Below are positions 4,974-55,271 of a DNA stretch of 64,000 nucleotides, piece by piece (position 1 is the first letter of the stretch; each line of letters starts with the position of its first letter). The position numbers and the translations under genes are program-made. Origin of the DNA: Myxococcus stipitatus (GTDB lineage: Bacteria; Myxococcota; Myxococcia; Myxococcales; Myxococcaceae). The notes under the pieces are model-generated. The model did no database searches. It was given only the letters and a program-made list of their open reading frames with translations, and was not told the DNA's origin. The stretch is taken from assembly GCF_037414475.1 (NCBI RefSeq), contig NZ_CP147913.1, positions 9,310,501 to 9,374,500 on the forward strand, given 5' to 3'.

Positions 4974-4977
<4 letters not shown>
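3202..4977 (+). CDS. E2 dihydrolipoyl acyltransferase fused to a C-terminal acyl carrier domain
   Basis: 591 aa, about 150 longer than an ordinary E2 with a single lipoyl domain. Order: lipoyl domain (1-80, Lys43 in EVMTAKATVMV; canonical T-D-K-A is T-A-K-A here), Ala/Pro linker, peripheral-subunit-binding domain (about 115-150, PRVRKLAEQLG), catalytic domain (about 175-390) with the active-site DHRVIDG (His369, Asp373), a linker with two copies of an LQ-x-[FY]-ADG-x-F motif (392 and 420), and a carrier domain (about 470-555) with the phosphopantetheine site GMDSL (Ser508). The tail ends in an amphipathic helix resembling the PKS C-terminal docking helices. An E2 with its own carrier domain immediately before a PKS lacking a loading module implies acyl transfer from lipoyl to carrier domain without a CoA intermediate. 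The transfer route is inference. It overlaps the next gene by ATGA. Confidence 0.92.
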
Positions 4978-20100: not shown

Positions 20101-22721
20101 TGGAGTTCGAGCGTGCGCTGGTGCTCCCCGAGTCCCGTCGGCGCATCCTCCAGGTGCACCTCTCACTGGCGTCGGACGGACAGCATCGCTTCCACATCCA
20201 CAGCCGCCCGGTGGGTGGGGCGACGCGTGAGGCTTCGTGGGTGCTTCACGCTCGCGGCCAGGTGCGCCTCATGGAGGCCGGGTCCAGCGCGAGCCCGGTC
20301 TCCGTCGAGAAGGTGCGGGCGGCGTGCACGCAGCATGTGCGGTCCTCGGCTCACTACGATGCGCTCGCCCAGCGCAACGTCCAGTACGAGCAGCCGCTGC
20401 GAACGTTGGGAGAGGTCTTTCGTCGGGCCGGTGAGGCGCTCGGGCGCATCACGCTGAGCCCGGAGGTTGTCCAGGAGTCGGAGCACTATCAACTCCATCC
20501 GGCCCTTCTCGACGCGGCCTTGCAGACCCTGGCGTCCGCCGTCATGGAAGAGGGAGATGGGGCCGCGCTGTTCATGCCCGTGCGCATCGGCGCGATTGAG
20601 TGCGCAGCGGGCCGTGCCCAGGTGGAGTGGGCTCATGCGTCCGTGGACTTCTCGGGGGATGGCTCGGCACCTGCCGGCGCGCTGGAGCTCCTCGATGGAA
20701 GTGGGGCGATGGTGGCCTCGGTTCGCGGTGTCCAGCTCAGGCGCGTCCCGGCGGAGAGCATCCTCGACGCGCTCGGGGCGCGGAGCGAGGAGGAGGCAGA
20801 GGACTGGCTCTACGACGTGGCATGGGAGCCCCGGCCCGCTGCCTCCGCAAACACGGCTGACGCGGACTGGCTGGTGTTCATTGATCAGCGTGGCTGTGGG
20901 ACGGCGCTCGTCGAGGAGATTTCAAACAAGGGTGACGCTTGCGTCACCGTGACGGCGGGAAGCGCGTACCAGCGTCTGGACGAGCGACGCTTCGTGGTGG
21001 ACCCGGCGCGGCCCGAGGACTTCGTGCGTCTGCTGCGTGAGGCACCTTCCTCGGCGACGCGGAGCCAACGAGTCCTCTATCTGTGGGGGCTCGATGCGGC
21101 AGGTGACGAGGTGCTGTCACCCTGGACCTCCGCCGGGGCTCTCCACGTCATCCAAGGTCTGCTGGCGGAACGCAAGAAGGCCCGCGTGTGGATGGTGACG
21201 CGAGGGGCCCAGGTGACCGGCTCCTCGGGCGAGAAGGTCTCTCTGTCTCAGTCGTCGCTGTGGGGCTTTGGTCGTGTGGTGTCCCTGGAGCAACCGGACC
21301 ACTGGGGTGGACTCATCGACCTGGACCCGGATGGTTCGTCCGCAGAAGCGGCGGCGCTGTTCCAGGAGATCTCCTCGTCCGAGGTGGATGGAGAAGATCA
21401 GGTCGCGCTGAGGAAGGAGCGGCGCGTGGTTCCTCGCCTCGTTTCCGCCCGCTCGCGGCAGACGGTGGAGCCGCTGAGCCTTCGTCCGGATGCGTCCTAC
21501 CTGGTGACTGGCGGGCTTGGAGGGTTGGGCCTGAAGGTGGCGCGGTGGTTGGTGGAGCGGGGGGCCCGGCACCTTGTGCTCGTGGGCCGGCGCGCGCTCT
21601 CCACGGAGGGCGCCGAGTCCGATCGCAGGGAAGAGGCTCTCGAGGCGCTTCGTGCTCTCGGAGCGACGGTCACCCCGGTGGCGGCCGATGTGTCGGAGCG
21701 CGCCCAGGTGGCGGCGCTCCTGCGCGAGGTGCCCACCACGCACCCGCTGCGCGGTGTCATCCACGCGGCTTCGCTCATGACGGCACATCGCCTGGAAGAC
21801 ATGGACGTGCGGGCCCTGACCGCGATGCTGCGTCCCAAGGCACTGGGCGCCGTGGTGCTCCATGAGCTGACGCGTGGGCTCGACCTGGATTTTTTCGTCA
21901 TGTTCTCGTCGACCTCGACGCTGTGGGGGGCCTCGGGACTGGCGCACTACGGGGCCGCGAACCAGGTCCTGGAGGCGCTCGCCCACCACCGTCGCGCGGC
22001 GGGCCTGCCGGCGACCACCATTCACTGGGGCACCTGGGATGAAGTGAGCGGCGAACGCGCGGAGGGCGCGCAGGGCTTCGAGCGCTTTGGCTTGAAGGCC
22101 ATGGCCTCTCCGCGAGCACTCGGTGCGATGGGGCAGGTGATGCGGTCGGGAGCGAAGGTCCAGACCGTCGCCTCCGTGGACTGGTCCTCGCTGAAGCCGC
22201 TCTGGGAGGCGCGGCGGCGGAGGCCATTCCTCCAGCAGGTGGGCGCCCCCGTGTCAGTGCCTGGCACCTCCGCGCGAGCACAGCTGCTCACGGAGCTGGA
22301 GGCGCTGCCTCCTCCCCGCCGCTTCGACGCACTGCTGCGACAGCTCCAGCGCGAGGTGGGGCGCATCCTCGGGTTCCCGCCCGCGGAGCCTCCGCCCACG
22401 GACCGTGGCTTCTTCCAGATGGGCATGACGTCACTGATGACCGTGGAGCTGCGCAACGTGCTCCAGCGGGGTTTCGGCAGGGAGCTCCCCGCGAGCCTGG
22501 CCTTCGACTACCCGACGGTGGAGTCCCTGGCGAAGCGGCTGGCGGGGCTCGCGGAGGCAGTGGAGATACCGCTGCCCGACAGCGGGGGGCCGGCGTCACG
22601 CGCGCAGGCCCCGGTGATGGATGAGAGCGGACTGTCCGAGCGCCTGTCGCGCATGGACCAGATGTCCGACGACGAAATCGAACGGCTGATCTCCGAGAAG
22701 ATCGCCGGAAGTTCGCACTGA
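17139..22721 (+). CDS. PKS extension module 3: KS-AT-(decayed DH)-KR-ACP (methylmalonyl, hydroxyl retained)
   Basis: 1860 aa. KS (35-455) Cys207; AT (558-860) GHSMG Ser650 and VASH (750-753), methylmalonyl type; a DH-sized region (920-1190) that still has HxxxGxxxxP (His953) and LLDAALQ, but whose conserved YGP is replaced by YEQ (1083-1085) and whose flanks are diverged. The KR (1450-1640) lacks LDD and has Trp1596 eight residues before Tyr1604, the A-type signature. The ACP site reads GMTSL (Ser1765), with Thr replacing the usual Asp. A non-functional DH plus an A-type KR predicts a secondary alcohol at C13 beside a methyl at C12, matching phenalamide. The N-terminal coiled coil and C-terminal helix are docking elements. 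It follows the previous gene by ATGA overlap and ends 16 bp before the next. Confidence 0.94.
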   Translation: MTTFAEKIAQYSPKRLALLALELKSKLDALEGARSEPVALIGMACRFPGGAVDPESFWRVLRDGVDAVTEVPPSRWTQEDAARCGPEARQKPGARWGAFLDEVDRFDAEFFGISPREAHHMDPQQRLLLEVAWEALEDAGQDVSKLTGSRTGVFAGVYNDDYAKLELGTPSDQDASSVTGTINSVVAGRLSYLLDLQGPCMVVDTACSSSLVALHLACQSLRAGECSMALAGGVNLILSPHSSLRVARGDALAPDGRCKTFDSRANGFVRGEGCGVVVLKRLSDAIAAGDPILALLRGSAVNQDGKSAGLTAPNMVAQTELLRQALRSAGLEPGDVDCIEAHGTGTSLGDPIEMEAIKTVYGQGRTAQRPLVVSAAKTNIGHLEAAAGIAGVIKAVLSLRHQTVPPLLHLQRVNPRIDLEGMPIVLPTSARPWPASEQSRRIAVSSFGASGTNAHVILEEAPTPSSRPVTSAPSAQLLTLSARTSSALREMAGRFADHLSASVEAPLQDVCRTAAMRRTHHEHRIAVVGGTAKELAEKLREAALAPGPARKGTGPRKVVFVFPGQGSQWLGMGRRLLEEEPAFRDALERIDAALRPHVSWGLLEVLRASPEQSRLGEIDVVQPVLFAMEVALAELWRSWGITPDAVLGHSMGEVAAAHVAGALSLEDAASIICERSKLLRRISGQGAMLAVELPMAEARTVIAGREASVAIAVSNSPTSTVLAGDALVLEEVRAALAERNVFCRWVKVDVASHSPQVDCLREELLAVLSALRPRPTSTLMLSTVTASACDGLGLDASYWVRNLREPVLFSTSVARLIEEGHTVFVELSPHPILLPAIERCLQHANREGLLLASLRREEAERSVMLESLGALYRAEHPVDWSRLFPEGGRVVPLPPYPWQRKRYWLDGAVLPVSAAAERLTSLRGRPVHVAQGLGGHVFELELGSTSLPWLGAHRLGGVAVLPASALVELVLSAAAEVSGAGRRALTEVEFERALVLPESRRRILQVHLSLASDGQHRFHIHSRPVGGATREASWVLHARGQVRLMEAGSSASPVSVEKVRAACTQHVRSSAHYDALAQRNVQYEQPLRTLGEVFRRAGEALGRITLSPEVVQESEHYQLHPALLDAALQTLASAVMEEGDGAALFMPVRIGAIECAAGRAQVEWAHASVDFSGDGSAPAGALELLDGSGAMVASVRGVQLRRVPAESILDALGARSEEEAEDWLYDVAWEPRPAASANTADADWLVFIDQRGCGTALVEEISNKGDACVTVTAGSAYQRLDERRFVVDPARPEDFVRLLREAPSSATRSQRVLYLWGLDAAGDEVLSPWTSAGALHVIQGLLAERKKARVWMVTRGAQVTGSSGEKVSLSQSSLWGFGRVVSLEQPDHWGGLIDLDPDGSSAEAAALFQEISSSEVDGEDQVALRKERRVVPRLVSARSRQTVEPLSLRPDASYLVTGGLGGLGLKVARWLVERGARHLVLVGRRALSTEGAESDRREEALEALRALGATVTPVAADVSERAQVAALLREVPTTHPLRGVIHAASLMTAHRLEDMDVRALTAMLRPKALGAVVLHELTRGLDLDFFVMFSSTSTLWGASGLAHYGAANQVLEALAHHRRAAGLPATTIHWGTWDEVSGERAEGAQGFERFGLKAMASPRALGAMGQVMRSGAKVQTVASVDWSSLKPLWEARRRRPFLQQVGAPVSVPGTSARAQLLTELEALPPPRRFDALLRQLQREVGRILGFPPAEPPPTDRGFFQMGMTSLMTVELRNVLQRGFGRELPASLAFDYPTVESLAKRLAGLAEAVEIPLPDSGGPASRAQAPVMDESGLSERLSRMDQMSDDEIERLISEKIAGSSH

Positions 22722-31300: not shown

Positions 31301-33790
31301 GCTGTCGTTCCCCGAGGACCAGTCGCGTTGGGTGCAGCTGTGGGTGACGTCGGAGCGTCCGGAGGTCAGCTCCTTCCGTCTCTTCAGCGCCCCCGTGGGT
31401 GAAGAGGGGCCCGCGGCTGCTCGTGAGTGGACGCTGCACGCGGAGGGCTCCATCCGCCATGGCGTTGCCATCGAAGGCTCGGCCCCGGTCGTGCTGGGAG
31501 AGTTGCTCGCGCGCTGCGAGACGCGCACCTCGGTGGAGTCGCAGTACGAGGCCTTCCTGGGAATCGGGCTCGACTATGGCCCGAGCTTCCGCACGGTGCG
31601 CGAGCTGCGCAAGGCGCGCGGGGAGTCGGTGGGGCGCGTTCAGCTCTCGGAGGAACAGGAGGCGGAGTCGGAGCGGTATGGCATCCATCCCGCGCTGCTC
31701 GATGGCTGCTTCCAGGTGCTCGCCGCGGCGCTGGAGGGGGTGGACGGGAAGGGTGGTGTCTATGTGCCCGTGTCGCTCGCGAAGCTGAGCATGCCGTTGC
31801 CTCCGGGAACGGCGGTGTGGAGCCACGTCCGAGTCCTGGAGGGCAGCTCCACCACCACGGGCCGCGTCGAGTGCGACGTGAGGCTCCTCGATGACCGGGG
31901 CGCGGTGGTCGTCGAGGCTCGGAGCCTGGTGTGCCAGCGTGTTGAGACGTCCCGTGCTCCCGTGGATGAGGTGGAGCGGTGGATTCACTCCATACAATGG
32001 CAGGCTCAGCCTCGCGCGGAGCGGGCGAAGGGGGGGCCCTCGGAGCGGGCTGGGCGCTGGTGGGTGTTCGCGGATGGACGAGGTGTCGGCGCGGCGTTGG
32101 CCAAGGTGCTGGCGGAGCGTTCGGAGGAATGTGTCGTCGTCGAGGAGGGCGCCGCCTACGAGCGGCTCGGCGCGGCTCGTTTCCGCATCCGGCCCGGGAG
32201 TGGCGAGGACATGCACGCCCTCCTGCGCGATGCCTTCAGCGAACAGGCGCCGTGCAAGGGGATGGTGCATCTCTTCAGCCTCGATACTCCTGACGCGAGC
32301 GCGCCCGAGGCGCTGGAGCACGCGCAGAATCTGGGCAGCGTCAGTGTGCTGCGCTTGATTCAGGCATGGGCGCAACGAGGCTGGCGGGATGCGCCACGGC
32401 TGTGGCTGGTGACGTCGGGGGCTCGAGTCGTCGCGACGGAGGATGTGTCTGGGGCGCTGGCCACCTCGTCTCTCGTGGGCCTGGCAGCGGTGGTGGGGCA
32501 CGAGCACCCAGAGCTGCGCTGTGTTCACGTGGACCTGAGCGCGCGTCCGGGGGCTGACGAAGTGGCCTCGCTCGCCGAAGAGCTGCTGTCCGATGGGACC
32601 GAGGAGCGGCTCGTGCTGCGTGGCTCGGGGCGCCAGGTGGCTCGGCTCGTGCGAGGCGCGGCCGCTGCGGCGGAGGCGAAGCCCTTCGCTGTCGTGGCCG
32701 ACGGTACCTATCTCATCACGGGGGGCCTGGGCGGGCTGGGGCTCGAGGTCGCGAAGTGGTTGGTGGGTCAGGGGGCGCGGCATCTGGCGCTCTCCGGGCG
32801 AGGTGCTCCTTCCGAGGTGGCGGGCCGCGTCTTGGAGGCCCTGCGAGGCGAGGGGGCGGAGGTTCGTGTCTACCGCGCGGATGTCTCACGCGATGAGGAC
32901 GTGGCGCGCTTGTTCGCGAGTCTCGACGCGGAGCTGCCGCCGCTTCGCGGTGTCTTCCATGCCGCGGGCATCATCGCCGATGGAGTGCTGACCCAGCTCG
33001 ACGAGAGCCGGCTTCGCGCGGTCATGGCGCCGAAGATCCAGGGTGCTTGGAATCTGCATGTTCGGACCCTGGGGCGTCCGCTCGATGTGTTCGTGATGTT
33101 CTCCTCGGCGGCGTCGGTGCTGGGCTCTCCGGGCCAGGGCAACTACGCGGCGGCGAACGCCTTCATGGACGCGTTGGCGCACCAACGTCACGCAGCGGGC
33201 CTGCCCGCGCTGAGCATCAACTGGGGGCCGTGGGCCGAGGTGGGGCTGGCCGCGGCGGCGGAGACTCGAGGGGAGCGGCTCGCGCTGCGAGGCGTGGGGA
33301 GCATGTCGACGGCGCAGGCGCTCGATGCGATGGGGCGCCTCCTCGGACGGGCCTCGGCGCAGGCCATCGTCGTCCCGTTGGATCTGCGGCAGTGGCGCGA
33401 GTTCTACGTGGCCGCGGCGCAGTCGCCCTTCCTCTCCGTCTTGATGAAGGAACAGGCGAGCACGGTCGCGCCGCGCAAGGGGGATGTGCGCGACAGGCTG
33501 GTGGCCGCGGAGCCCGCCAGCCGACGGGCGCTGTTGGAGCAGTACCTTCGTGAGCAGGTGGGCCGCATCCTCAAGCAGGACGCGGCGCGTGTTGAGGTGG
33601 ACCAGCCCTTCGGTGTTCTCGGGATGGACAGCCTGACGGGGCTCGAGCTGCGCAATCGCCTCGAGTCCGGCTTGAAGCTCACGCTGTCCGCGACGCTCAT
33701 CTACGCGTACCCGACGGTCGCGGCGCTGACGGTGCATCTCATCGAGCAGCTCGACCTCCCTGTCGTGTCCACCGTGGAGCCAGTGTCGGC
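28314..33790 (+). other. PKS module 5 (KS-AT-DH-KR-ACP) with an atypical AT
   Basis: The AT starts with YPGQGAQRAEMG where the other methylmalonyl-like ATs read [12 protein letters not shown] (or GGQW). The specificity motif is V752-P753-S754-H755, neither YASH/VASH nor HAFH. The surrounding sequence (GHSMGEVVAAHVAG) still groups with the methylmalonyl-type ATs of modules 1-4 and 8. The product needs an unbranched C8 here, so malonyl is expected. DH His957 lies in an intact HxxxGxxxxP. The KR has IIAD in place of LLDD and Tyr1611, with no A-type Trp. Confidence 0.85.
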
Positions 33791-36700
33791 TGGGGTTCTT
33801 CCTCGGGTGGTGGCGCGGGCCGAGCCTTCGAGGGCGATGGAGTCGGGGGTAGAGCCCATCGCCATCGTGGGGCTCGCCTGCCGATTCCCAGGGGGCGCGG
33901 ACAGTCCGGAGGCTTACTGGGAGCTCTTGCGCGACGGCGTGGACGCGGTGCGTGAAGTGCCGAGTGACCGCTGGCGGACGAGCGCGGATGCGGCGGAGCA
34001 CTTGGGCACGCGGTGGGGCGGATTCCTCGACCGGGTGGATGGATTCGACCCGGAGTTCTTCGGCATCGCTCCTCGCGAGGCCGTGGCGATGGACCCGCAG
34101 CAGCGGTTGTTGCTGGAGGTCGCGTGGGAGGCGCTCGATGACGCGGGGCTGCCGAGGTCGCGCCTCACGGGGACTCGGACGGGTGTCTTCGTCGGCGCGA
34201 GTGGAAATGACTACGCGATGCTTCAAGCGCGGGCGGATGTCGAAGGGGACATCTACTCGGTCATCGGTGTGTCCAACAGCGTCATCGCGGGCAGGCTTGC
34301 GTACCTGCTGGACCTGCGGGGGCCTGCGCTGACGGTGGACACGGCGTGCTCATCGTCGATGGTGGCGTTGCACCTGGCCTGCCAGAGCCTGCGCAATCGT
34401 GAGTGCGACGCGGCGCTCGCGGGAGGGGTCAACCTGGTGCTGTCCGACAGGCCGGGCCTGTGGCTCTCCAAGCTGTCGGCGCTCTCTCCGGATGGTCGCT
34501 GCCGCGCATTCGATGCGGGAGCCAACGGCTTCGTGCGTGGCGAGGGCTGCGGCGCCGTGGTGCTCAAGCGACTCTCCGACGCGGTGGCGGGCGGCGACAA
34601 CGTCCTCGCGATCATTCGCGCGACGGCGGTGAACCAGGACGGTGGTTCGAATGGGCTGACCGCGCCCAACGTGCTCGCGCAGCAGGCGCTCATTCGCGAG
34701 GCCCTGGCTTCGGCGAGGCTGGCGCCGTCGGACATCGGGTACATCGAGGCGCATGGCACGGGGACGCCGCTGGGTGACCCGATAGAGACCGAGGCGCTGC
34801 GTGCGACGTACGGCAAGGCGCGGCCGGACGGAAGTCACTGCTATCTGGGGTCGGTGAAGACGAACCTCGGCCATCTGGAGTCGGCCGCGGCGATGGCGGG
34901 ACTCATCAAGACGGTGCTCGCGCTGCGGCATCAGGCCATCCCGAAGCACCTGCACTTCAAGGCGCTCAATCCACGCATCTCGCTGGAGGGCACGCCGTTC
35001 GTCATCCCGACGCAGCTTCAGCCGTGGCCCGCTTCCGAGCGGCGCCGCTTCGCGGCTGTGAGCTCCTTCGGCATGAGCGGTACGAACGCGCACGCCATTC
35101 TGGAGGAGGCGCCGGCCGTGGCCGTGTCGGGCGCAAGCGCGGAAACGCGCGTGCGGCGCACCGTTGCAGCTTCGGGCGCGGGTGTGGATTCACGCATGCC
35201 GGCTCACGAAATGGCTGCCCCGCGTGAGGATGCCCATGGGCATACCTCTGGCGATGGATTCGTCGACTCCTCGGACCTGTCGTCGATGGAGCTCGCGCAG
35301 CCGCTTGTCCTGTCCGCGCGAAGTGATGCCGCGTTGCGTGCCTTCGCGGGGGCGTATCGGGAGTTCCTGACGGATGCTCGCAGCGAGCCCCTTTCCCTTC
35401 GGGACATCGCCTTCACCGCGGCCCTGCGTCGCGGTCATCACGAACATCGGTTGACGGTCGCTGGGCGCTCCCGGTCTGAAATCGCGGAGCAGCTTCGCGT
35501 CTATCTCAGCGGCGGGACCGCCGCGAACCTCACCACGGGCGTCGTTCCGCGCAAGCCGGGCAGGGTGGCCTTCGTCTTCAACGGGCAAGGCACACAGTGG
35601 AAGGGAATGGGGCGAGATCTGCTCGCCCGGGATGCGGTGTTCGCCGCATCACTGAGAGAGTGCGATTCGCTGTTGGCTCCGCACACCGGCTTTTCCATCG
35701 TGGAGGAGCTGGAGGCGGATGGCGCCGCGTCGAGGCTTGATGAGACACAAGTGGCGCAGCCCGCCATCTTCGCCATTCAGGTCGCGCTCGCGGCGACGTG
35801 GCGCTCACTGGGCATCATCCCCGAGGCCGTTGTCGGCCATAGCGTGGGAGAGATTGCCGCCGCGCACGTGGCCGGAGCATTGAGCCTCGCGGAGGCCGCG
35901 CGCCTCGTGGCGCACCGCGGGCGCTTGATGCAGCGGGTGACCGGCCATGGACGCATGGCCGCCGTCGAGCTCACACCGGAAGAGGCCCAGGCCGAGATTA
36001 CCCGCTTCGGAGAGCGGCTCTCCGTCGGAGCCATCAACGACGCACGTTCGGTGGTCCTCTCGGGGGAGCCCGTCGCTCTCGCGGAGGTGCTCCAGGCGCT
36101 CAAGGCTCGCGGTGTCTCCACGCGAGACCTCGGCGTCGACTACGCGTTCCACAGCCACCAGATGGTGCCGCTCCAGTCCGAACTGAAGTCGCTGCTTGGC
36201 ACCCTGGAGACCCGGTCGACCTCCCTCCCGCTTTTCTCCACGGTCACTGGCGCCATCGTCGAAGGACGCACGCTCGACGCGACCTACTGGGCCAACAACA
36301 TGCGCGAGGCCGTACGCTTCGCGGATGCAACCCACGCGATGATCGACGAGGGCTATCGGCTCTTCGTGGAGGTCGGGCCTCAGCCCGCGCTCAGCCGGTA
36401 CGTGTCTCAGGCCCTCTCGCGCCGCACCCTGGAAGGCACCGCGCTTCCGTCCATGCGCAAGGGCCGGGACGGACGCACGGTGCTCCTCGGCGCGCTGGGC
36501 GGTCTCCATGCCTGGGGCTTCCAGGTCGATTGGGCGCGAGTGTTCCCTTCTGGGGGACGAGTCGTCTCGCTTCCCGCGTACCCCTGGCAGCGGGCCCGCT
36601 ACTGGGTCGACCTCGGCGACTTCGCGATGACTGCGCGCTCGCTGACGCGGGATGCGGTCCGCGCGAATGTCTCGACCAACGGAGTCTCCGCCTCGGACGA

Positions 36701-39700
36701 ACTTGTCTACGATGTATCCTGGCAGGTGCGCCCACGTGGAGCTTCCGCCGAACGTACTCCTCCTCGCTCTGGAGCCTGGGTCGTCTTCGGCCATCGCGAG
36801 GGCATCGGTGGTGCGCTGAAGTCCCTGCTCCAATCCCGGGGCGAGAACTGCTGGCTCGTTGTCCCCGGTACCGAAGAGTCCATTCATGAGGACGTTCGCA
36901 CGCTCGATCCTCGGCGGCCGGAGCATTACGAGCAGCTGCTGCGTGGGGTGGGGGCGATCCGTGGCGTGATTCACCTGTGGGGCGCCGGTGAGGCCTCCTC
37001 CGAGGAGCCGTCGCTCGCGGACCTCGAATCCTCACAGGTGCACGGTGTTCGCTCGGCCGCGCATCTCGCGAGGGCCTTGGTGCGCATCGGAGTGCCGGGC
37101 GTACGTCTCTGGCTGGGGACTCGAGGGAGCCAGGCCGTGGCGGGGGCCGCGAGCCGCTCGCCGGTTCATGCTCCGTTGTGGGGGTTGGGGCGTGTTCTGG
37201 CCTTGGAGCATCCGGAGGTGTGGGGCGGCCTCATGGACCTCGAGCCTGGCGCACCCGTGGGGGAAGCGGAGGCTCTGTGGGACGAGCTGTCCAGCCCCGA
37301 TGGCGAGGACCAGGTCGCCTTCCGTGGTGGCATCCGCCATGTCGCGCGACTCGTCCCCGCGCCGCTGGCGCCCCTCTCACGGGCACTCTCCTTGCGCGCC
37401 GACGCGACCTATCTCGTCACCGGAGGACTGGGCGGGCTGGGTCTTCATGTCGCGCGTTGGATGGTGGAGAAGGGGGCTCGGCACCTCGTGCTGTTGGGCC
37501 GGCGTGGGCTGCCCGAACGTTCAACCTGGGCCAGCGTCCCCAGTGACAGTGACACGGGCCGGCAGATCGCCGCGGTGGAGGCGCTGGAGAAGGCCGGGGC
37601 CACCGTGCGGGCCGTCAGCGCGGACGTCGGCGACGCGGCGCGCATGGTCGCGGTCATCGACTCTGTTCGCGAAGGACCCGCTCCGCTGCGCGGCATCATC
37701 CACGCGGCGGGTGTCTCGACGCTCGTGCCGTTCGAGTCCATGGACGACGCCATGCTGTCGGCCATCCTGAGGCCGAAGGTCACGGGAGCCTGGGCCCTGC
37801 ACCAGCTCACGCGAGGGCTGGACCTGGACTTCACCATCTTCTTCTCGTCGGGCTCGGCGGTGTGGGGCTCGGCGCAGATGGCGCACTACGCCGCGGGCAA
37901 TCAGTTCCTCGACGCGTTGGCGCACTACCGTCGAGCGAAGGGCGAGCGGGCGTTGAGCATCAACTGGGGGCCCTGGGCGGCCGAGGGCATGGCCACGGAA
38001 GAGGGCCAGCGCTGGTTCGCGCGCATGGGCATGGGCTCCATCTCCGTGGACCAGGGGCTCCAGGTGCTCGAGTCCTTGATCTCATCGGACGTCACCCAGC
38101 GAAGCGTCGCCGTGGTGGATTGGGAGCGCTTCAAGACGGTCTACGAGGCGCGCGGGCGGAGGCCCTTGCTGGAAGGGCTTGGGACTTCTCGGGTACCGCG
38201 CTCCATCGAACCCTCGGCCACGGGCAGCGAGTGGATGGCGACGCTGCGCAACGCCTCCAGTGAGCGTCGCGCGGAGTTGATGACGGCGTGGGTGCGCGAG
38301 GAGGTTGCCCGGGTGCTCGGCTTCTCGTCGGCCACGGCGGTGAAGCTCGACCAGGGCTTCGTCGACTCCGGCATGGACTCGGTGACGGCGGTGGAGCTGC
38401 GAAGCCGCTTGTCGGCGCGGCTCGGTGTGCAGGTGGCCTCCACGGTCGCGTTCGACCATCCCTCGGTGCAGGCGCTCTCGACCCATCTGCTGCGCGATGT
38501 CCTCCGCGCGGAGGAGAAGGTCGTGGAGACGGAGCGGGTGGCCATCGGCGTGAATGAGCCCATCGCGATTGTCGGCATGGGTTGCCGAGTGCCGATGGCC
38601 TCGAGCCCTGATGAGTTCTGGAGGCTCCTGGAGCGTGGCGTCGACGCCATCCGCGAGGTGCCCGCCGAGCGGTGGGACCTGAGTGCCTACTACGACCCGC
38701 AGGGGGCGCCAGGGAAGAGCTACACGCGGTGGGGTGGCTTCGTGGACGGGGTCGATCAATTCGACCCACAGTTCTTCGGCATCTCTCCGCGTGAGGCGGC
38801 GAGCATGGACCCACAGCAGCGCATGCTGCTGGAGGTGACGTGGGAGGCGTTGGAGAACGCGGGCATCGCGCCGTCCCGGCTCGCGAACACGCGGACGGGT
38901 GTCTTCGTGGGCCTGGGCAGCAACGAGTACGCCTCCATCCATGGCGTGGGCACGGACAAGGCCGCGGGAGATGCGTACATCGCGACGGGCAACGACGCGA
39001 GCTTCGCCGCTGGCAGGCTCTCCTTCGTGCTGCGGCTCCAGGGCCCGGCGATGAGCCTGAGCACCGCGTGCTCCTCGTCGCTCGTGGCCGTGCACCTGGC
39101 CTGCCAGAGTCTGCGCGCGGGGGAGAGCAACGTGGCCCTCGCGGGCGGCGTCAACCTGACGTTGTCTCCGCACTCCACGGTGTACCTCGCGCAGCTCCGA
39201 GCCCTCTCGAAGGACGGCCGCTGCAAGACCTTCGATGCGTCCGCGGATGGCTACGTGCGCAGCGAAGGCTGCGGCATCATCGTCCTCAAGCGGCTCTCCG
39301 ATGCGCGCAGGGACGGCGACGAGGTGCTCGCCGTCATTCGTGGCTCGGCGGTCAACCATGACGGTCCGAGCAGCGCGCTCACCGTGCCCAACGGCGCGGC
39401 CCAACAACAGGTCCTCCGCGCCGCGCTGGAGAACGCCGGCGTGGCGCCCAGCGATGTCGACTACATCGAGGCACACGGCACGGGCACGTCACTCGGAGAC
39501 CCGATTGAAATCCGGGCGCTGTCCCACGTGCTGGGCGAGGGGCGTACGCCGGAGCAGCGGCTGCTCATCGGCTCGGTGAAGACGAACATCGGCCACCTGG
39601 AGGCGGCGGCGGGTATCGCGGGGCTCATCAAGGTCGTGCTGGCCCACCGGCACGGCGTCATTCCTCCGCACCTGCACCTGAAGCAGCTCAATCCGCACAT

Positions 39701-42700
39701 CGAGCTGAACGGCTTCCCGCTGGACATCGCGACGCAACCCACGCGGTGGCCGGAGCGCCAGCGGCCGAGAATCGCGGGCGTCAGCGCCTTCGGACTCAGC
39801 GGCACCAACGCGCACATCGTCATCGAGGAAGCCCCCGCGCCCGCGCCCGTGGCGGCGCAGCAGGAGCGTGCCTTCCAGGTCCTCGCGTTGTCGGCGAAGA
39901 CCGAGGGGGCGCTGAAGCAACTCGCGACGCGGATGAGCGAACACCTCGCGGAGCATCCGGAGCAAGCGCTCGCGGACGTGTGTGTGTCGGCGAGCACGCA
40001 GCGCTCCGACTTCCCTCATCGCCTGGGCGCGGTGGTCGACTCCGCGGCGCAGGCGCGCGAACGGCTGCTGGCCTTCGTGCGAGGGGAGGAGTCGGAGCGG
40101 CTCGTCCACGGACGCATGGGCGACGAGTCTCCTCGAGTCGTCTTCATGTTCACGGGGCAGGGCTCGCAGTACGTGGGCATGGGCCGGGAGCTGTACGCCT
40201 CCGAGCCTGTCTTCCGCGCGGCCCTCGACCGCTGTGACGCGCTGCTCGAGGGGAAGCTGGGCGAGTCCCTGCTGTCGGTGATGCATGGCTCGGGCGGGCG
40301 CATCGACGAGACGGAGTACACGCAGCCGGCGCTGTTCGCGCTGGAGTACGCGCTGACAGAGCTGTGGCGCTCGTGGGGCGTGGAGCCCTGGGGTGTGTTG
40401 GGCCACAGTGTCGGCGAGTACGTGGCCGCATGTGTCGCCGGAGTGCTTACGCTCGAAGAGGCGCTGAGGCTCATCACCGAGCGCGCGCGGCTCATGCAAG
40501 CCCTGCCTCGGGGCGGTGAGATGGTGGCCGTCACCGCGGGCGAGGCTCGAGTCTCGGCGGTGCTGGAGCCGTACGCGGGGCGGGTCTCCATCGCGGCGGT
40601 GAACGGACCGCAAGACACGGTCATCTCCGGCGAGCGCGAGGCGGTGAACGCCGTCGCCGCGGTGCTCCAGGCCGAGGGGCTCAAGACCCGGCGGCTCACG
40701 GTCTCCCACGCCTTCCACTCGCCGCTGATGGAGCCGATGCTGGAGGCGTTCGAGCGCGAGGCGAAGAAGGTCTCCTATCGGGTGCCGCGCATCCGCTTCG
40801 CGTCCAACGTCACGGGACAGGTCCTCGCGGGAGAGGCGACGCTCGATGCCGCCTACTTCCGCCGTCATGTCCGCGAGGCCGTCCGGTTCCACGACGGTCT
40901 GCGTGCGCTGCGTGAGCAGGGCGCGGACGTCTTCCTGGAAGTCGGGCCGCATCCGACGTTGACGGGCATGGCGCTGAAGGCGCTGGGGGATGAGGGGCTC
41001 ACCTGGTTGTCCTCGATGCGCAAGGGCCAGTCCGAGGAGCCACACCTCCTCACGAGCCTGGGGGCGCTCTACACGCGGGGCCTCACGGTGAAGTGGGCCG
41101 CGTTGAACGGCGACCGCCGTCGCCAGCGCGTGGCGTTGCCGACGTACCCCTGGCAGCACCAGCGGCACTGGTTGGAGGTCCCCACGGCCACGCGGCCTGA
41201 CTCGCGGCGCGCGGCGAGTGCCCATGCACTGGTCGGTCAGCGTGTGCGCTCCCCGCTGAACAAGGCGCTCGTCTTCGAGTCCCGCTTCAGCGCGGAGGCG
41301 CTGCCGTTCCTCGATGACCACCGCCTCTACGGGACGGTGGTCGTGCCGGGGTCGTGCCACATCTCGCGCATCCTCGCGACGGCGGCACAGGCGCTCGGGC
41401 CCGGGTCGTACACCCTGGAGGACTGCCTCTTCCCGCAGCCCATCGTGCTCGCCGAGGGAGAGGAGCGGCTCGTGCAACTCGTGCTCACTCCCAAGGGGCA
41501 GAACCGGTACAGCTTCGAGATCTACAGCGTGGAGTCATCCGCCGAGGACGAATCCGCGAGCTGGGTCCTCAACGGCTCCGGCGGCTTGCAGGTGGAGGAG
41601 GGCGTGGCGCGTCCAGCGCCGCTCACTCTCCACGAGATTGAAGCGCGCTGCATGCATCTCGCGGACGCGGGGATGTACGAACAGAACCGCGATATCGGCT
41701 ACCACCTGGGGCACGGGTTCCGGTGGATCGAGCGCATCCGAGGCGGAGAGGGCGAGGTGCTCTGCCAGATGCGCGGCCCTACGGACCAGGACGACCCGAG
41801 CCTGTTCATCCATCCGGGCCTCGTCGACTCGTTCCTCCAGGCGTTGGGTACGGACCTCGTGCGCGCGCAGGAGCAGCTCACCACGGTCTACGTGCCCATC
41901 TCCCTGGGCCGCTTCCGCTTCCACGAGCGCCCGACGGGGCCGGTGACGGCCTATGCCGTGCGCCGGGATGGCGGCGGAGTCACGGGGGAGATCATCTCCG
42001 GCGACGTGTACGTGGTCGACGCGGAGGGCCGGGTCCTGGTGGAGATCGAAGGACTGAAGCACAAGCGTGCTCCCCGGGAGGCGCTGATGGCGGTGCTTCG
42101 CCAGGACTCGCGCGATGCGCTCTACGAGGTGGGCTGGCAGCGTCAGGCCGTTCCCGCGGGAGTGCCCGCCCGCGGCCGCTGGCTCCTGTTCACGGACGGA
42201 GCCGGTCCTGCGGAGGCTCTCGCGGCGAAGCTGCGTGAGAGTGGATGCCGTCCCGCGCTGGTCCACGCGGGGGACTCGTTCGTTCGCCAGGATGATGACC
42301 GCTTCACCATCGACCCACGGAGGGCCGAGGACTACACGCGCCTGCTCGCGGAGGTGGCACTGCCGGGTGAGCCGCTCGCGGGTGTGGTCCATCTCTGGGC
42401 GCTCCAGGACGGTGCGCCCAAGAAGATGGGGGCGATACATGCGCTGACTTGCGGCAGCGTCCTCCACCTCATCAAGTCGTTGGCGGCGGGGGAGCCTTCG
42501 TCCGCGCGTGTGTGGCTGGTGACGCGGGGCGCCCGCGCGGTGGGAGCTGGCATCCGGCCGCTCGCGCTGGAGCAGACTCCTCTCTTGGGGCTCGGTGTCG
42601 TCTTCTCGCAGGAGCACCCCGAGCTGTGTGGGGCGCTCGTCGACCTCGACCCCGTCACCCCGGAGGGCGATGTGCTCGCGCTCTGGAGGGAGCTCAGCGC

Positions 42701-44009
42701 CACGGATGGCGAGCGGCAGGTGGCCATTCGTGATGGCCAGCGTCATGTGGCGCGAGTGCGTGCCGCGCGGGACGAGCGACGAGCCGAGGCCCCCCGTTTG
42801 CGCCCGGACGCGAGCTACCTCATCACCGGTGGCCTTGGAGGATTGGGGCTCGCGTTGGCTCGGGGCCTGGTCGACCGGGGCGCGCGGAACCTCGTGCTCC
42901 TGGGGCGCGGTGCTCCCAAGCCGGACGCGTGGGAGTCCGTCCGCGCCATGGAGGCCACGGGTGTGAAGGTCTCCGTTCTCCAGGCGGATATCTCGAAGAG
43001 GGAGGACGTGCGGCGCGTGCTCGAGGTGGCGGCGGTGCTCGCGCCGCTGCGGGGCGTGGTGCACGCGGCGGGTGTCCTGGATGACGGTGTCCTCCTGCAA
43101 CAGGACTGGGAGCGCTTCGCGCGTGTGCTCGCCCCCAAGGTGGAGGGTGCGTGGCATCTGCATGAGCTGACGCAGGGGATGGAGCTCGACTTCTTCGTGC
43201 TCTATTCCTCGGCATCCGCGCTGCTCGGTGCGAGGGGGCAGGGCAGCTACTCGGCCGCCAACGCGTTCCTCGATGCGCTGGCACATCACCGCCGAGCCCT
43301 CGGGTTGCCGGCGTTGAGTGTCAACTGGGGGCCTTGGGCCGAGGTGGGCATGGCGGCGTCGCTCGCGGCCCGCTTCCGGGCGCAGGGCATCGAGACGTTC
43401 ACCCCCGTGGAAGGACTCAAGGCCCTCTGGCGCGCGCTCGCCTTCGACAAGGCGCAGCTCACACTGATGCGAGTCGACTGGTCGCGCTACCTCTCGCAGC
43501 TTCCGCCCGGTGCGGCTCCGTCCCTGTTCTCGGAGTTGGCCGCGCGGAGTGGCGCGCAGGCCTCGGCGGACCCGGGAGCGTCGCAGAAGCTGCGTCGCCA
43601 ATTGGAGGCCGCGCCGCCTCGGCAGCGGCTGTCGATCCTCATGGAGTTCGTGAGGGCCGAGGCCATCAAGGTGCTGGGGCTCGAGCCCACGTTCCCGCTG
43701 GAGCCTCGGCAACGGCTGTTCGAGTCGGGGCTGGATTCGTTGATGGCCCTGGAGTTGCGCAACCGTCTCCAGAGCGGCGTGGGGGCGGCGCTGCCATCGA
43801 CGCTGGTGTTCGACTACCCCAGCGTCGAGTCGCTCGCGACGTACCTGCTCCGCGACGTCCTCCATCTGGAGGAGCCGCAGGCGAACGGGGAGGAGGAGGC
43901 GAAGGCGGAGGAAGCCGCCCTCGTCGGGAAGATCATGGACCTGTCGCCGGATGAGCTCGCCGCGTCGCTCGACGCGAAGCTCGCGGCCCTGATGGAAGAA
44001 AACGGATGA
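28314..44009 (+). CDS. Trimodular PKS, extension modules 5-7 (polyene-forming)
   Basis: 5231 aa protein with three complete modules in one chain. Module 5 (about 40-1815): KS-AT-DH-KR-ACP. Module 6 (about 1846-3395): KS-AT-KR-ACP with no DH. Module 7 (about 3414-5180): KS-AT-DH-KR-ACP. Carrier serines are 1773, 3356 and 5142; KS cysteines 203, 2012 and 3586; AT serines 651, 2510 and 4032. It begins with a docking helix and ends with LSPDELAASLDAKLAAL. Colinearity assigns it the three malonyl-derived units of the conjugated polyene, C3-C8, with alkenes at C8=C9, C6=C7 (Z) and C4=C5. It lies 2 bp after the upstream gene and overlaps the downstream one by ATGA. Details for each module are in separate entries. 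Confidence 0.95.
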   Translation: MANQSDDSSEQLSPAKRMLVALEKMQARLNAVEGAAKEPIAIVGMACRYPGASSVESYWRMLEEGRDAVREVPTDRWSPEEAALIGNGAMRWGGYLDKVDAFDAGFFGISPREAVRMDPQQRLLLEVAWEALEDAGVDAEKLAGSRGGVFIGACNDDYHLMQLERPESGDAFSIPGLAMSVLSGRLSYTLNLQGPSLVVDTACSSSLVSVHLACQSLRARECNLALAGGVNLILSPLSLVLVSKLQALAPDGRCKAFDAAANGFSRGEGCGVLVLKRLSDAQADGDRILALIRGSASNQDGKSTGLTAPNVLSQQALIQQALENARLQPAQVTYVEAHGTGTSLGDPIEVEALRETYGAPRSDGGACALASVKTNVGHLESAAGVAGLMKVVLAMRHQTLPPHLHLKQVNPRIGLEDSSLFIPTRLTPWADGGQPRRAGVSSFGISGTNAHIILEEAPAASVKPSLPERVEVLTLSARGRDALTELASRYAERLEGDANISLPTFCRTAAVHRTHHEHRLSVLADTRERVAERLRAFASGSSPDELWTGRKAFGVRRKVVFVYPGQGAQRAEMGKALMAAEPVFREALAKVDAVLRPQLGWSVLDELAVDESRSRLHEIDINQPALFAVEVALTALWRSWGIEPDAVMGHSMGEVVAAHVAGALSLEDAATIICHRSRLMRTLGGRGATMAMVELPLAEAQEAILPWTGRVWLGALNSPRSQVLSGDPEAVKEAVAALEKRGVFCRWVKMDVPSHTPLVASICEELEAKLARIQPRSTHIPICSTVTGDFVDGARLDAAHWGRNLREPVLFAAAATQLIASECDVFIEVSPHPVLLPAVEQTMRAAEKEGTVLASLRRSEEERRTMLSALGALYAMGHRVAWRQVFPVEGRREALPTYPWQRQRYWMEPVTQGVRSSRGTIGHPLLGERVDLSAQGGVARLWQVQLGPRELPMLSEHRVQGVPALPAAAMMDMALSAARQVFDGPVSLVDLGFRSLLSFPEDQSRWVQLWVTSERPEVSSFRLFSAPVGEEGPAAAREWTLHAEGSIRHGVAIEGSAPVVLGELLARCETRTSVESQYEAFLGIGLDYGPSFRTVRELRKARGESVGRVQLSEEQEAESERYGIHPALLDGCFQVLAAALEGVDGKGGVYVPVSLAKLSMPLPPGTAVWSHVRVLEGSSTTTGRVECDVRLLDDRGAVVVEARSLVCQRVETSRAPVDEVERWIHSIQWQAQPRAERAKGGPSERAGRWWVFADGRGVGAALAKVLAERSEECVVVEEGAAYERLGAARFRIRPGSGEDMHALLRDAFSEQAPCKGMVHLFSLDTPDASAPEALEHAQNLGSVSVLRLIQAWAQRGWRDAPRLWLVTSGARVVATEDVSGALATSSLVGLAAVVGHEHPELRCVHVDLSARPGADEVASLAEELLSDGTEERLVLRGSGRQVARLVRGAAAAAEAKPFAVVADGTYLITGGLGGLGLEVAKWLVGQGARHLALSGRGAPSEVAGRVLEALRGEGAEVRVYRADVSRDEDVARLFASLDAELPPLRGVFHAAGIIADGVLTQLDESRLRAVMAPKIQGAWNLHVRTLGRPLDVFVMFSSAASVLGSPGQGNYAAANAFMDALAHQRHAAGLPALSINWGPWAEVGLAAAAETRGERLALRGVGSMSTAQALDAMGRLLGRASAQAIVVPLDLRQWREFYVAAAQSPFLSVLMKEQASTVAPRKGDVRDRLVAAEPASRRALLEQYLREQVGRILKQDAARVEVDQPFGVLGMDSLTGLELRNRLESGLKLTLSATLIYAYPTVAALTVHLIEQLDLPVVSTVEPVSAGVLPRVVARAEPSRAMESGVEPIAIVGLACRFPGGADSPEAYWELLRDGVDAVREVPSDRWRTSADAAEHLGTRWGGFLDRVDGFDPEFFGIAPREAVAMDPQQRLLLEVAWEALDDAGLPRSRLTGTRTGVFVGASGNDYAMLQARADVEGDIYSVIGVSNSVIAGRLAYLLDLRGPALTVDTACSSSMVALHLACQSLRNRECDAALAGGVNLVLSDRPGLWLSKLSALSPDGRCRAFDAGANGFVRGEGCGAVVLKRLSDAVAGGDNVLAIIRATAVNQDGGSNGLTAPNVLAQQALIREALASARLAPSDIGYIEAHGTGTPLGDPIETEALRATYGKARPDGSHCYLGSVKTNLGHLESAAAMAGLIKTVLALRHQAIPKHLHFKALNPRISLEGTPFVIPTQLQPWPASERRRFAAVSSFGMSGTNAHAILEEAPAVAVSGASAETRVRRTVAASGAGVDSRMPAHEMAAPREDAHGHTSGDGFVDSSDLSSMELAQPLVLSARSDAALRAFAGAYREFLTDARSEPLSLRDIAFTAALRRGHHEHRLTVAGRSRSEIAEQLRVYLSGGTAANLTTGVVPRKPGRVAFVFNGQGTQWKGMGRDLLARDAVFAASLRECDSLLAPHTGFSIVEELEADGAASRLDETQVAQPAIFAIQVALAATWRSLGIIPEAVVGHSVGEIAAAHVAGALSLAEAARLVAHRGRLMQRVTGHGRMAAVELTPEEAQAEITRFGERLSVGAINDARSVVLSGEPVALAEVLQALKARGVSTRDLGVDYAFHSHQMVPLQSELKSLLGTLETRSTSLPLFSTVTGAIVEGRTLDATYWANNMREAVRFADATHAMIDEGYRLFVEVGPQPALSRYVSQALSRRTLEGTALPSMRKGRDGRTVLLGALGGLHAWGFQVDWARVFPSGGRVVSLPAYPWQRARYWVDLGDFAMTARSLTRDAVRANVSTNGVSASDELVYDVSWQVRPRGASAERTPPRSGAWVVFGHREGIGGALKSLLQSRGENCWLVVPGTEESIHEDVRTLDPRRPEHYEQLLRGVGAIRGVIHLWGAGEASSEEPSLADLESSQVHGVRSAAHLARALVRIGVPGVRLWLGTRGSQAVAGAASRSPVHAPLWGLGRVLALEHPEVWGGLMDLEPGAPVGEAEALWDELSSPDGEDQVAFRGGIRHVARLVPAPLAPLSRALSLRADATYLVTGGLGGLGLHVARWMVEKGARHLVLLGRRGLPERSTWASVPSDSDTGRQIAAVEALEKAGATVRAVSADVGDAARMVAVIDSVREGPAPLRGIIHAAGVSTLVPFESMDDAMLSAILRPKVTGAWALHQLTRGLDLDFTIFFSSGSAVWGSAQMAHYAAGNQFLDALAHYRRAKGERALSINWGPWAAEGMATEEGQRWFARMGMGSISVDQGLQVLESLISSDVTQRSVAVVDWERFKTVYEARGRRPLLEGLGTSRVPRSIEPSATGSEWMATLRNASSERRAELMTAWVREEVARVLGFSSATAVKLDQGFVDSGMDSVTAVELRSRLSARLGVQVASTVAFDHPSVQALSTHLLRDVLRAEEKVVETERVAIGVNEPIAIVGMGCRVPMASSPDEFWRLLERGVDAIREVPAERWDLSAYYDPQGAPGKSYTRWGGFVDGVDQFDPQFFGISPREAASMDPQQRMLLEVTWEALENAGIAPSRLANTRTGVFVGLGSNEYASIHGVGTDKAAGDAYIATGNDASFAAGRLSFVLRLQGPAMSLSTACSSSLVAVHLACQSLRAGESNVALAGGVNLTLSPHSTVYLAQLRALSKDGRCKTFDASADGYVRSEGCGIIVLKRLSDARRDGDEVLAVIRGSAVNHDGPSSALTVPNGAAQQQVLRAALENAGVAPSDVDYIEAHGTGTSLGDPIEIRALSHVLGEGRTPEQRLLIGSVKTNIGHLEAAAGIAGLIKVVLAHRHGVIPPHLHLKQLNPHIELNGFPLDIATQPTRWPERQRPRIAGVSAFGLSGTNAHIVIEEAPAPAPVAAQQERAFQVLALSAKTEGALKQLATRMSEHLAEHPEQALADVCVSASTQRSDFPHRLGAVVDSAAQARERLLAFVRGEESERLVHGRMGDESPRVVFMFTGQGSQYVGMGRELYASEPVFRAALDRCDALLEGKLGESLLSVMHGSGGRIDETEYTQPALFALEYALTELWRSWGVEPWGVLGHSVGEYVAACVAGVLTLEEALRLITERARLMQALPRGGEMVAVTAGEARVSAVLEPYAGRVSIAAVNGPQDTVISGEREAVNAVAAVLQAEGLKTRRLTVSHAFHSPLMEPMLEAFEREAKKVSYRVPRIRFASNVTGQVLAGEATLDAAYFRRHVREAVRFHDGLRALREQGADVFLEVGPHPTLTGMALKALGDEGLTWLSSMRKGQSEEPHLLTSLGALYTRGLTVKWAALNGDRRRQRVALPTYPWQHQRHWLEVPTATRPDSRRAASAHALVGQRVRSPLNKALVFESRFSAEALPFLDDHRLYGTVVVPGSCHISRILATAAQALGPGSYTLEDCLFPQPIVLAEGEERLVQLVLTPKGQNRYSFEIYSVESSAEDESASWVLNGSGGLQVEEGVARPAPLTLHEIEARCMHLADAGMYEQNRDIGYHLGHGFRWIERIRGGEGEVLCQMRGPTDQDDPSLFIHPGLVDSFLQALGTDLVRAQEQLTTVYVPISLGRFRFHERPTGPVTAYAVRRDGGGVTGEIISGDVYVVDAEGRVLVEIEGLKHKRAPREALMAVLRQDSRDALYEVGWQRQAVPAGVPARGRWLLFTDGAGPAEALAAKLRESGCRPALVHAGDSFVRQDDDRFTIDPRRAEDYTRLLAEVALPGEPLAGVVHLWALQDGAPKKMGAIHALTCGSVLHLIKSLAAGEPSSARVWLVTRGARAVGAGIRPLALEQTPLLGLGVVFSQEHPELCGALVDLDPVTPEGDVLALWRELSATDGERQVAIRDGQRHVARVRAARDERRAEAPRLRPDASYLITGGLGGLGLALARGLVDRGARNLVLLGRGAPKPDAWESVRAMEATGVKVSVLQADISKREDVRRVLEVAAVLAPLRGVVHAAGVLDDGVLLQQDWERFARVLAPKVEGAWHLHELTQGMELDFFVLYSSASALLGARGQGSYSAANAFLDALAHHRRALGLPALSVNWGPWAEVGMAASLAARFRAQGIETFTPVEGLKALWRALAFDKAQLTLMRVDWSRYLSQLPPGAAPSLFSELAARSGAQASADPGASQKLRRQLEAAPPRQRLSILMEFVRAEAIKVLGLEPTFPLEPRQRLFESGLDSLMALELRNRLQSGVGAALPSTLVFDYPSVESLATYLLRDVLHLEEPQANGEEEAKAEEAALVGKIMDLSPDELAASLDAKLAALMEENG
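33852..38520 (+). other. PKS module 6 (KS-AT-KR-ACP), no dehydratase, A-type ketoreductase
   Basis: The AT carries GHSVG (Ser2510) and YAFH (2610-2613), closer to malonyl than methylmalonyl specificity. After the AT the chain goes straight into the KR structural subdomain, with no HxxxGxxxxP or DxxxQ segment. The KR (3030-3235) lacks LDD and has Trp3184 eight residues before Tyr3192, an A-type signature; ACP Ser3356. A roughly 50-residue Ala/Ser/Gly-rich insert sits between KS and AT (35110-35290). Colinearity places this module at the 6Z double bond, so dehydration must be done by another domain, most simply the DH of module 7. Confidence 0.88.
38556..44009 (+). other. PKS module 7 (KS-AT-DH-KR-ACP), malonyl-specific
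   Basis: The AT has GHSVG (Ser4032) and the textbook malonyl motif HAFH (4132-4135). The DH has His4336 in an intact HxxxGxxxxP and an HPGLVDSFLQ segment, but its YGP block is replaced by YHLGHGF (from 4463). The KS active site reads STACSSS, with Ser in place of the usual Asp before TACSSS. The KR is LDD type with Tyr4979; ACP Ser5142. The module is sequence-divergent from modules 1-5, suggesting separate ancestry. It would form the C4=C5 alkene and possibly also dehydrate the module 6 hydroxyl. Confidence 0.86.
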
Positions 44010-55250: not shown

Positions 55251-55271
55251 TTCATCCACGAGGTTTTGGTC

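What the first reader, a model, noticed from the sequence alone, without database searches (positions are those of the whole stretch)
33852..44009. Module 6 has an A-type KR and no DH, yet must give the 6Z alkene
Module 6 is KS-AT-KR-ACP with Trp3184 eight residues before Tyr3192 and no LDD. A-type KRs make the L-hydroxyl that can be dehydrated to a cis alkene, which fits the Z bond at exactly this position. All other alkene-forming modules have non-A-type KRs. The DH must act from another module; module 7 DH, itself unusual (YHLGHGF for YGP), is the prime suspect and may work twice or on a vinylogous intermediate.
Basis: partly seen in the sequence, partly recalled or inferred. Interest (0 to 1): 0.62.

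Follow-up and report, generated by a model that had tools for sequence, protein, structure and literature searches.

The report
Two modules share one dehydratase
In a myxobacterial antibiotic assembly line, one station lacks its own water-removing enzyme, and the next station's enzyme, kin to one reported to remove water twice, most likely does the job for both and so sets up a pair of double bonds.

Summary
Module 6 (33852-38553) is KS-AT-KR-ACP with no dehydratase; its KR has Trp3184 eight residues before Tyr3192 and no LDD. All 17 orthologous loci fetched with the whole module share this. The cluster has phenalamide/myxalamid architecture (cluster paper recalled, not held), so the module serves C6=C7. 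Its nearest solved structure is curacin CurJ DH, by sequence (5.8e-49 against 1.1e-31 for the next protein) and by predicted fold; CurJ is reported to make dienes from 3,5-diols by two eliminations. The 'odd' YHLGHGF belongs to a lineage signature (LGxxFxW) shared with CurJ and DHs in three phyla. Such DHs follow a DH-less KR module in 13 of 16 clusters whose upstream module has a KR or DH, against 6 of 26 for other DHs (p = 0.0004, but these DHs are nearly one clade). Best reading: modules 6-7 are a cis-AT counterpart of the trans-AT 'type B dehydrating bimodule' (A-type KR, one DH acting twice, 2E,4Z-diene). Weak points: 6Z is recalled, phenalamide F is assigned all-E, and nothing was assayed.

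The parts
33852..38553 (+). Module 6: KS-AT-KR-ACP, no DH
   Evidence: Pfam; motifs; AT-KR gap 327 aa
35571..36416 (+). AT6 (YAFH)
37395..37994 (+). KR6, predicted A-type
   Evidence: nearest solved KRs are Plm1 and AmphB
37863..37889 (+). Trp3184 to catalytic Tyr3192 of KR6
38280..38492 (+). ACP6 (GMDSV)
38556..44009 (+). Module 7: KS-AT-DH-KR-ACP
   Evidence: Pfam
41205..42071 (+). DH7, CurJ-lineage dehydratase proposed to act for modules 6 and 7
41319..41348 (+). DH7 catalytic His4336 motif HRLYGTVVVP
41697..41720 (+). DH7 motif 2 GYHLGHGF (start of the LGxxFxW signature)
41826..41840 (+). DH7 catalytic Asp motif DSFLQ
42801..43358 (+). KR7, B-type by motif (LDD)
21483..22046 (+). KR3, second KR with W; serves the C13 hydroxyl expected to be kept

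Best explanation
Modules 6 and 7 work as one dehydrating pair. KS6/AT6 add a malonyl unit and KR6 (A-type) makes the L-3-hydroxyl at the future C7; module 6 has no DH, so the hydroxyl is passed on. KS7/AT7 add the next malonyl unit and KR7 (B-type) makes a D-3-hydroxyl at the future C5, giving a 3D,5L-dihydroxyacyl-ACP7. DH7 removes the C5 hydroxyl (C4=C5, E) and then, by vinylogous elimination through the new enoyl system, the C7 hydroxyl (C6=C7). In the frame of module 7 the product is a 2E,4Z-dienoyl chain, which is 4E,6Z in the phenalamide/myxalamid numbering. Shown here: domain anatomy, KR types by motif, intact DH7 active-site motifs, CurJ kinship, conservation of the arrangement. Inferred: both eliminations, their order, and the Z outcome.
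For: Module 6 lacks a DH and KR6 has the W motif in 17 of 17 orthologous loci with the whole module; the KS, AT, KR and ACP active-site motifs of module 6 are present. KR6's nearest solved chains are the KRs of Plm1 (4hxy) and AmphB; Plm1 is described as pairing an A-type KR with cis-bond formation (PMC3962154 and PMC5331325, passages), and AmpKR2 (5xwv, one of the AmphB entries) is called A1-type (PMC11228615, passage). The W rule is checked inside this PKS family: KR3 has W here and in four other loci (L149, L151, L152, L154), and C13 in phenalamides is given as R, by analogy with phenalamide A2 (PMC13148359), which by my CIP analysis is the L hydroxyl. DH7 alone against the PDB finds CurJ first (5.8e-49) over AlnB DH (1.1e-31), CurF, CurK and CurH (6.2e-10) (the name of 7tzl). 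The predicted fold (pTM 0.83) also puts CurJ first. CurJ is reported to do sequential eliminations from 3,5-diols (PMC12828468). The LGxxFxW DH class follows a DH-less KR module in 13 of 16 clusters whose upstream module has a KR or DH, other DHs in 6 of 26 (60% clusters, Fisher p = 3.6e-4; with no-KR contexts counted, 13 of 20 against 6 of 42, p = 1.0e-4). In one of the three LGW exceptions (L081) the upstream DH has Lys for the catalytic His. In trans-AT PKSs the same logic, A-type KR plus one DH eliminating twice, is described as a type B dehydrating bimodule giving 2E,4Z dienes (PMC8456789, passages).
Against: No enzyme was assayed. Curacin's diene is reported E,E, so CurJ shows two eliminations, not the Z outcome. 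The LGW DHs are nearly one clade (4 label changes among 102 rows; 3 independent pairs on starred branches, no significance), so the context association has few independent origins. The set is a sample: the phylum searches scored 6 to 12 candidates per genome, one search's list was cut, and from it I chose the places to fetch, so controls are hand-picked. Some LGW DHs follow proteins without a KR (4 of 26 clusters) or a module with an apparently intact DH (2 of 26, L081 set aside), so the class is not only double-acting. Nearest-neighbour tests do not show that the KR or KS partners travel with the DH (KR 7 of 16 against 14 of 51; KS 6 of 23 against 9 of 81). Phenalamide F is assigned all-E. 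Only 5 of 42 KRs paired with Z-type DHs carry W in a published survey, and W is of moderate accuracy outside actinobacteria (PMC11228615). The AlphaFold alignment held a CurJ-like sequence (L013), which may favour CurJ in the fold ranking.
Confidence: 0.6

Rival explanations
1. DH7 reaches back and dehydrates the L-3-hydroxyacyl chain while it is still on ACP6, before extension, giving a plain 2Z-enoyl that KS7 then extends. One DH still serves both modules, but no vinylogous step is needed.
For: Same anatomy. Epothilone modules 4/5 are recalled as a precedent for a downstream DH making a cis bond; no text on it was found here (listings, passages).
Against: Closest kin CurJ is reported to use 3,5-diols, and type B bimodules are described with both KSs elongating and two eliminations by one DH.
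Confidence: 0.17
2. Another DH acts for module 6, most likely the canonical DH5 on the same polypeptide.
For: DH5 has intact His, YGPSF and Asp motifs and lies on the same protein.
Against: DH5 lies outside the LGxxFxW group in the tree; nothing seen in its sequence sets it apart.
Confidence: 0.08
3. The C6=C7 geometry is not set by the pair: an E bond is made and isomerised, or Z and E forms interconvert after release.
For: Phenalamide F is assigned all-E over 2,4,6,8; PMC5331325 lists cis bonds that arise by isomerisation (passage).
Against: None of the 10 non-PKS and NRPS proteins of the window given to Pfam matched an isomerase family (one match to 3-beta HSD/isomerase in the NRPS is its reductase domain), but one of them (55266-56693) matched no family at all, so this is weak; an A-type KR at exactly this step would then be without purpose.
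Confidence: 0.08
4. This strain's product differs and keeps a 7-hydroxyl, so no dehydration is missing.
For: No chemistry is held for this genome; KR modules without a DH ordinarily make alcohols (general knowledge).
Against: DH7 is 93% identical to that of G129, whose length (10350586 bp) equals, by recall, that of the phenalamide producer M. stipitatus DSM 14675; gene order fits the phenalamide cluster as recalled.
Confidence: 0.07

Closest known systems
Phenalamide PKS of Myxococcus stipitatus (Park et al. 2016, recalled; paper not held; phenalamide-negative mutant MYSTI_04326::pSH109 in passages of PMC13218925)
   Same: E1/E2-ACP starter genes, eight PKS modules, NRPS ending in a thioester reductase, SIP-type flavoprotein; DH7 93% identical to that of G129.
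   Different: No difference of kind found; strain identity and product of this genome are untested.
Myxalamid PKS (Silakowski et al. 2001, recalled)
   Same: Loci with 65-71% identity in DH7, some of which I take to be myxalamid clusters, carry modules 5-7 on one protein with the same DH-less module 6.
   Different: Different starter (recalled).
CurJ DH of curacin biosynthesis (3kg8, 5tz6)
   Same: Nearest solved DH to DH7 by sequence and fold; HLGQSFRW signature; double elimination reported.
   Different: Curacin diene reported E,E; the visible end of the KR upstream of the curJ-like gene in L013 lacks W; 35-37% identity.
trans-AT type B dehydrating bimodules (PMC8456789, passages)
   Same: KR-only module, usually with an A-type KR, followed by a second elongating module whose DH eliminates twice to a 2E,4Z diene.
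   Different: Here cis-AT, in one polypeptide and not split, and order KS-AT-DH-KR-ACP in the second module.

Membership tests
A-type ketoreductase (KR6) | Trp eight residues before the catalytic Tyr, no LDD | tested here: met
A-type ketoreductase (KR6) | makes an L-3-hydroxyl | not testable with these tools
   only an internal check by KR3 and the reported 13R
Active PKS dehydratase (DH7) | HxxxGxxxxP His and DxxxQ Asp | tested here: met
Active PKS dehydratase (DH7) | GYxYGPxF motif | tested here: not met
   GYHLGHGF; but CurJ, reported active, also departs (HLGQSF)
CurJ-like DH lineage | closest to CurJ among solved DHs, LGxxFxW | tested here: met
Type B dehydrating bimodule | DH-less KR module before an elongating module with a DH | tested here: met
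Type B dehydrating bimodule | trans-AT PKS, split as KS-KR-ACP-KS//DH-ACP-KR | tested here: not met
   own AT domains, one polypeptide; hence 'works like', not member
Type B dehydrating bimodule | DH makes two eliminations, 2E,4Z diene | not testable with these tools
   needs assay
Phenalamide cluster | PDH-like starter genes, eight PKS modules, one NRPS module (recalled abstract) | tested here: met
Phenalamide cluster | strain makes phenalamide | not testable with these tools
   no chemistry held

The most novel reading that the evidence does not exclude
LGxxFxW is a readable marker of a whole class of cis-AT dehydrating bimodules in Myxococcota, Cyanobacteria and Chloroflexota: a DH-less KR module followed by a double-eliminating CurJ-type DH, where the type of the upstream KR (A or B) writes the geometry of the distal alkene (Z or E). 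Of the 13 LGW clusters after a DH-less KR module, by my reading have an upstream KR with W (A-type), 6 one with an Asp of the LDD kind (B-type) and 2 are unclear. The two product families I can name fit: phenalamide/myxalamid (W, 6Z recalled) and curacin (no W, E,E reported).
Probability: 0.35. Interest if true: 0.65.

Novelty: new variant of a known kind. Interest (0 to 1): 0.5.

Why it matters
How PKSs make Z alkenes is still debated; [quoted passage not shown] A cis-AT pair on one polypeptide, with a DH of the CurJ lineage and an A-type KR placed where the Z bond is expected, gives a compact system to test whether the upstream KR alone sets alkene geometry. A sequence marker for shared DHs would also correct product prediction, which would read such a module as alcohol-forming.

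Tried and rejected
Rejected: that DH7's motif marks a dead DH. CurJ, reported active, departs in the same way, and DH7's His and Asp motifs are intact. Rejected: that the motif's His is the important change; it varies among orthologues.

Tried without clear result: nearest-neighbour tests for co-inheritance of KR6 or KS7 with DH7; independent-pairs test on the DH tree, too few pairs. For a published note on the missing DH in myxalamid or phenalamide I made four library searches and saw listings only, reading passages of three of the 20 papers that hold 'phenalamide' (with 65, 84); none of what I saw reports it. Park 2016 is not held and Silakowski 2001 was not looked up, so whether the missing DH is already in print is open. 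For epothilone modules 4/5, listings and passages gave nothing usable.

Rows left out: DH pieces under 180 aa; rows with upstream 'unknown' or 'KR_incomplete' are outside the Fisher tables. The 240-aa cut dropped none (102 clusters, 102 rows). Some fetched stretches overlap (for example L112/L113, L133/L134, L070/L147), so the raw counts hold duplicates; the clustering merges them. All 27 places listed and all 11 were fetched;'s cut list I chose a part: the orthologues, high scorers, and lower scorers as controls.

The review PMC3962154 (passage) says CurJ pairs its DH with an A-type KR and makes a cis bond; the curJ-like gene in L013 has an LDD-type KR (curJ-like by eye) and PMC12828468 says E,E. 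Not resolved.

Full report
What was checked. The window lies in a 10.3 Mb single-contig genome at 9310501-9374500. ORF 28314-44009 encodes three PKS modules, counted 5 to 7 from the first PKS gene. Pfam finds KS, AT, KR and ACP but no DH in 33852-38553. Among the eight KRs only KR3 and KR6 carry the W; the other six keep LDD, or in KR5 its second Asp. A DH is found in modules 1, 3, 7 and 8 by Pfam, of the five modules given, and in modules 1-5, 7 and 8 by own-seed search. DH3 keeps its His and Asp motifs but has a broken motif 2 (VQYEQPLRTL), as expected where the hydroxyl stays.

What the cluster is. Three pyruvate-dehydrogenase-like genes, the last fused to an ACP, lie before the PKS genes. 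The line ends in an NRPS of condensation, adenylation, carrier and thioester-reductase domains. This matches the phenalamide cluster as I recall its abstract (Park et al. 2016); the paper is not held, but a phenalamide-negative mutant of MYSTI_04326 appears in PMC13218925 (passages). Genome G129 is 93% identical in DH7 and has the length I recall for M. stipitatus DSM 14675. Counting modules, module 6 processes C7 and so should make C6=C7. That phenalamide A1 and the myxalamids are 6Z is recalled. In the text I read, phenalamide F is assigned all-E over 2,4,6,8, argued mainly from J8,9, with H-6 and H-7 unresolved (PMC13148359, section 6 part 2), so Z at this position is not secure for every member.

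KR6. Its nearest solved chains are the Plm1 and AmphB KRs. Plm1 is described as pairing an A-type KR with cis-bond formation (PMC3962154, PMC5331325, passages). An internal check supports the W rule in this family: KR3 has W in the window and in four other loci, and C13 is given as R. At C13 the C14 side outranks C12, so the L hydroxyl is R (my CIP analysis). A survey warns that W is of moderate accuracy outside actinobacteria and that only 5 of 42 KRs working with Z-type DHs have it (PMC11228615, passages).

DH7. Alone against the PDB it finds CurJ first at 5.8e-49, then AlnB DH 1.1e-31, CurF 2.7e-26, CurK 2.9e-23 and, lower, CurH 6.2e-10 (7tzl is named AlnB). An AlphaFold model (pTM 0.83) ranks CurJ first by Foldseek and by VIA-align 2 (Z 36.4, against 32.5 for the next protein); the alignment held a CurJ-like sequence, so the fold ranking is not wholly independent. 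Aligned DHs show that Leu for the YGP Tyr, and Trp two residues after the Phe, are shared by DH7, its 18 orthologues, the curJ-like DH of L013 and DHs of Symploca, of Chloroflexota and of a genome in the genus of Archangium lansinium. [quoted passage not shown]

Context test. Of 204 DHs in the fetched loci (overlapping stretches counted twice), 69 are of the LGW class: not Tyr or Phe at the YGP Tyr, Trp two after the Phe. Their upstream modules: 39 KR without DH, 6 with DH, 9 without KR, 15 unresolved. Of the other 135: 8, 56, 26 and 45. Clustered at 60% identity (84 clusters), LGW: 13 KR without DH, 3 DH, 4 no KR, 6 unknown; others: 6, 20, 16, 16. Fisher p is 3.6e-4 for KR-without-DH against DH, and 1.0e-4 with no-KR added; 70% and 50% clusters give p of 1.6e-4 and 5.3e-4 for the first comparison. 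One of the three LGW exceptions, L081, follows a DH with Lys at the catalytic His. The four no-KR clusters follow a fatty-acyl-AMP-type loader, an NRPS, an acyl-CoA-dehydrogenase protein or, in the L060 group, a bare N-terminal ACP (by reading the sequences; names mine). On a tree of 102 representatives the LGW label needs 4 changes (shuffle mean about 26), so it is nearly one clade and only 3 independent pairs stand on starred branches. The association is a property of a lineage; it is not proof of repeated adaptation.

Mechanism. The best reading is a cis-AT pair that works like the trans-AT type B dehydrating bimodule, in which, per PMC8456789 (passages), both KSs elongate, one DH removes two waters and a 2E,4Z diene results, usually with A-type KRs. 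DH7 would remove the C5 hydroxyl and then the C7 hydroxyl through the new enoyl. I do not file it as a member of that family: it has its own ATs and is not split. The plainest rival is that DH7 acts on ACP6 before extension.

Confidence. That DH7 is the enzyme: about 0.77 (pair model plus reach-back rival). That it does both eliminations on the extended chain: about 0.6. That the LGxxFxW class is a general marker with KR-coded geometry: about 0.35.

Noticed in passing
48416-48826 (module 8): Module 8 holds a decayed enoylreductase remnant: about half of ER1 still aligns, but no zinc-ADH Pfam model matches; fits a retained C2=C3 alkene.
   Followed up: partly
19944-20756 (module 3): DH3 keeps His and Asp motifs but has a broken motif 2 (VQYEQPLRTL) beside a KR with W, in the module expected to keep its hydroxyl; it sits on a long branch with its counterpart in L151.
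   Followed up: partly
L113 (7537 on) and L104: Chloroflexota module with order KS-AT-KR-DH-ACP: a KR with W followed, not preceded, by an MGPSFRW DH in one module.
   Followed up: no
L081, ORF from nt 3593: DH with Lys in place of the catalytic His, directly before an LGW-type DH module.
   Followed up: partly
35148-35303 (module 6): The KS-AT linker of module 6 has an insertion of about 50 aa; its KS match alone of the eight is split there.
   Followed up: no
30567-30581 (module 5): AT5 has VPSHT where the other seven ATs have xASHS or xAFHS, although a malonyl unit is expected there.
   Followed up: no
3202-4977: E2 acyltransferase of the starter complex fused to an ACP, joining a 2-oxoacid dehydrogenase directly to the PKS.
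   Followed up: partly
L013, curJ-like gene from nt 999: Its own KR has LDD, against a review that calls CurJ's KR A-type with Trp (PMC3962154).
   Followed up: no
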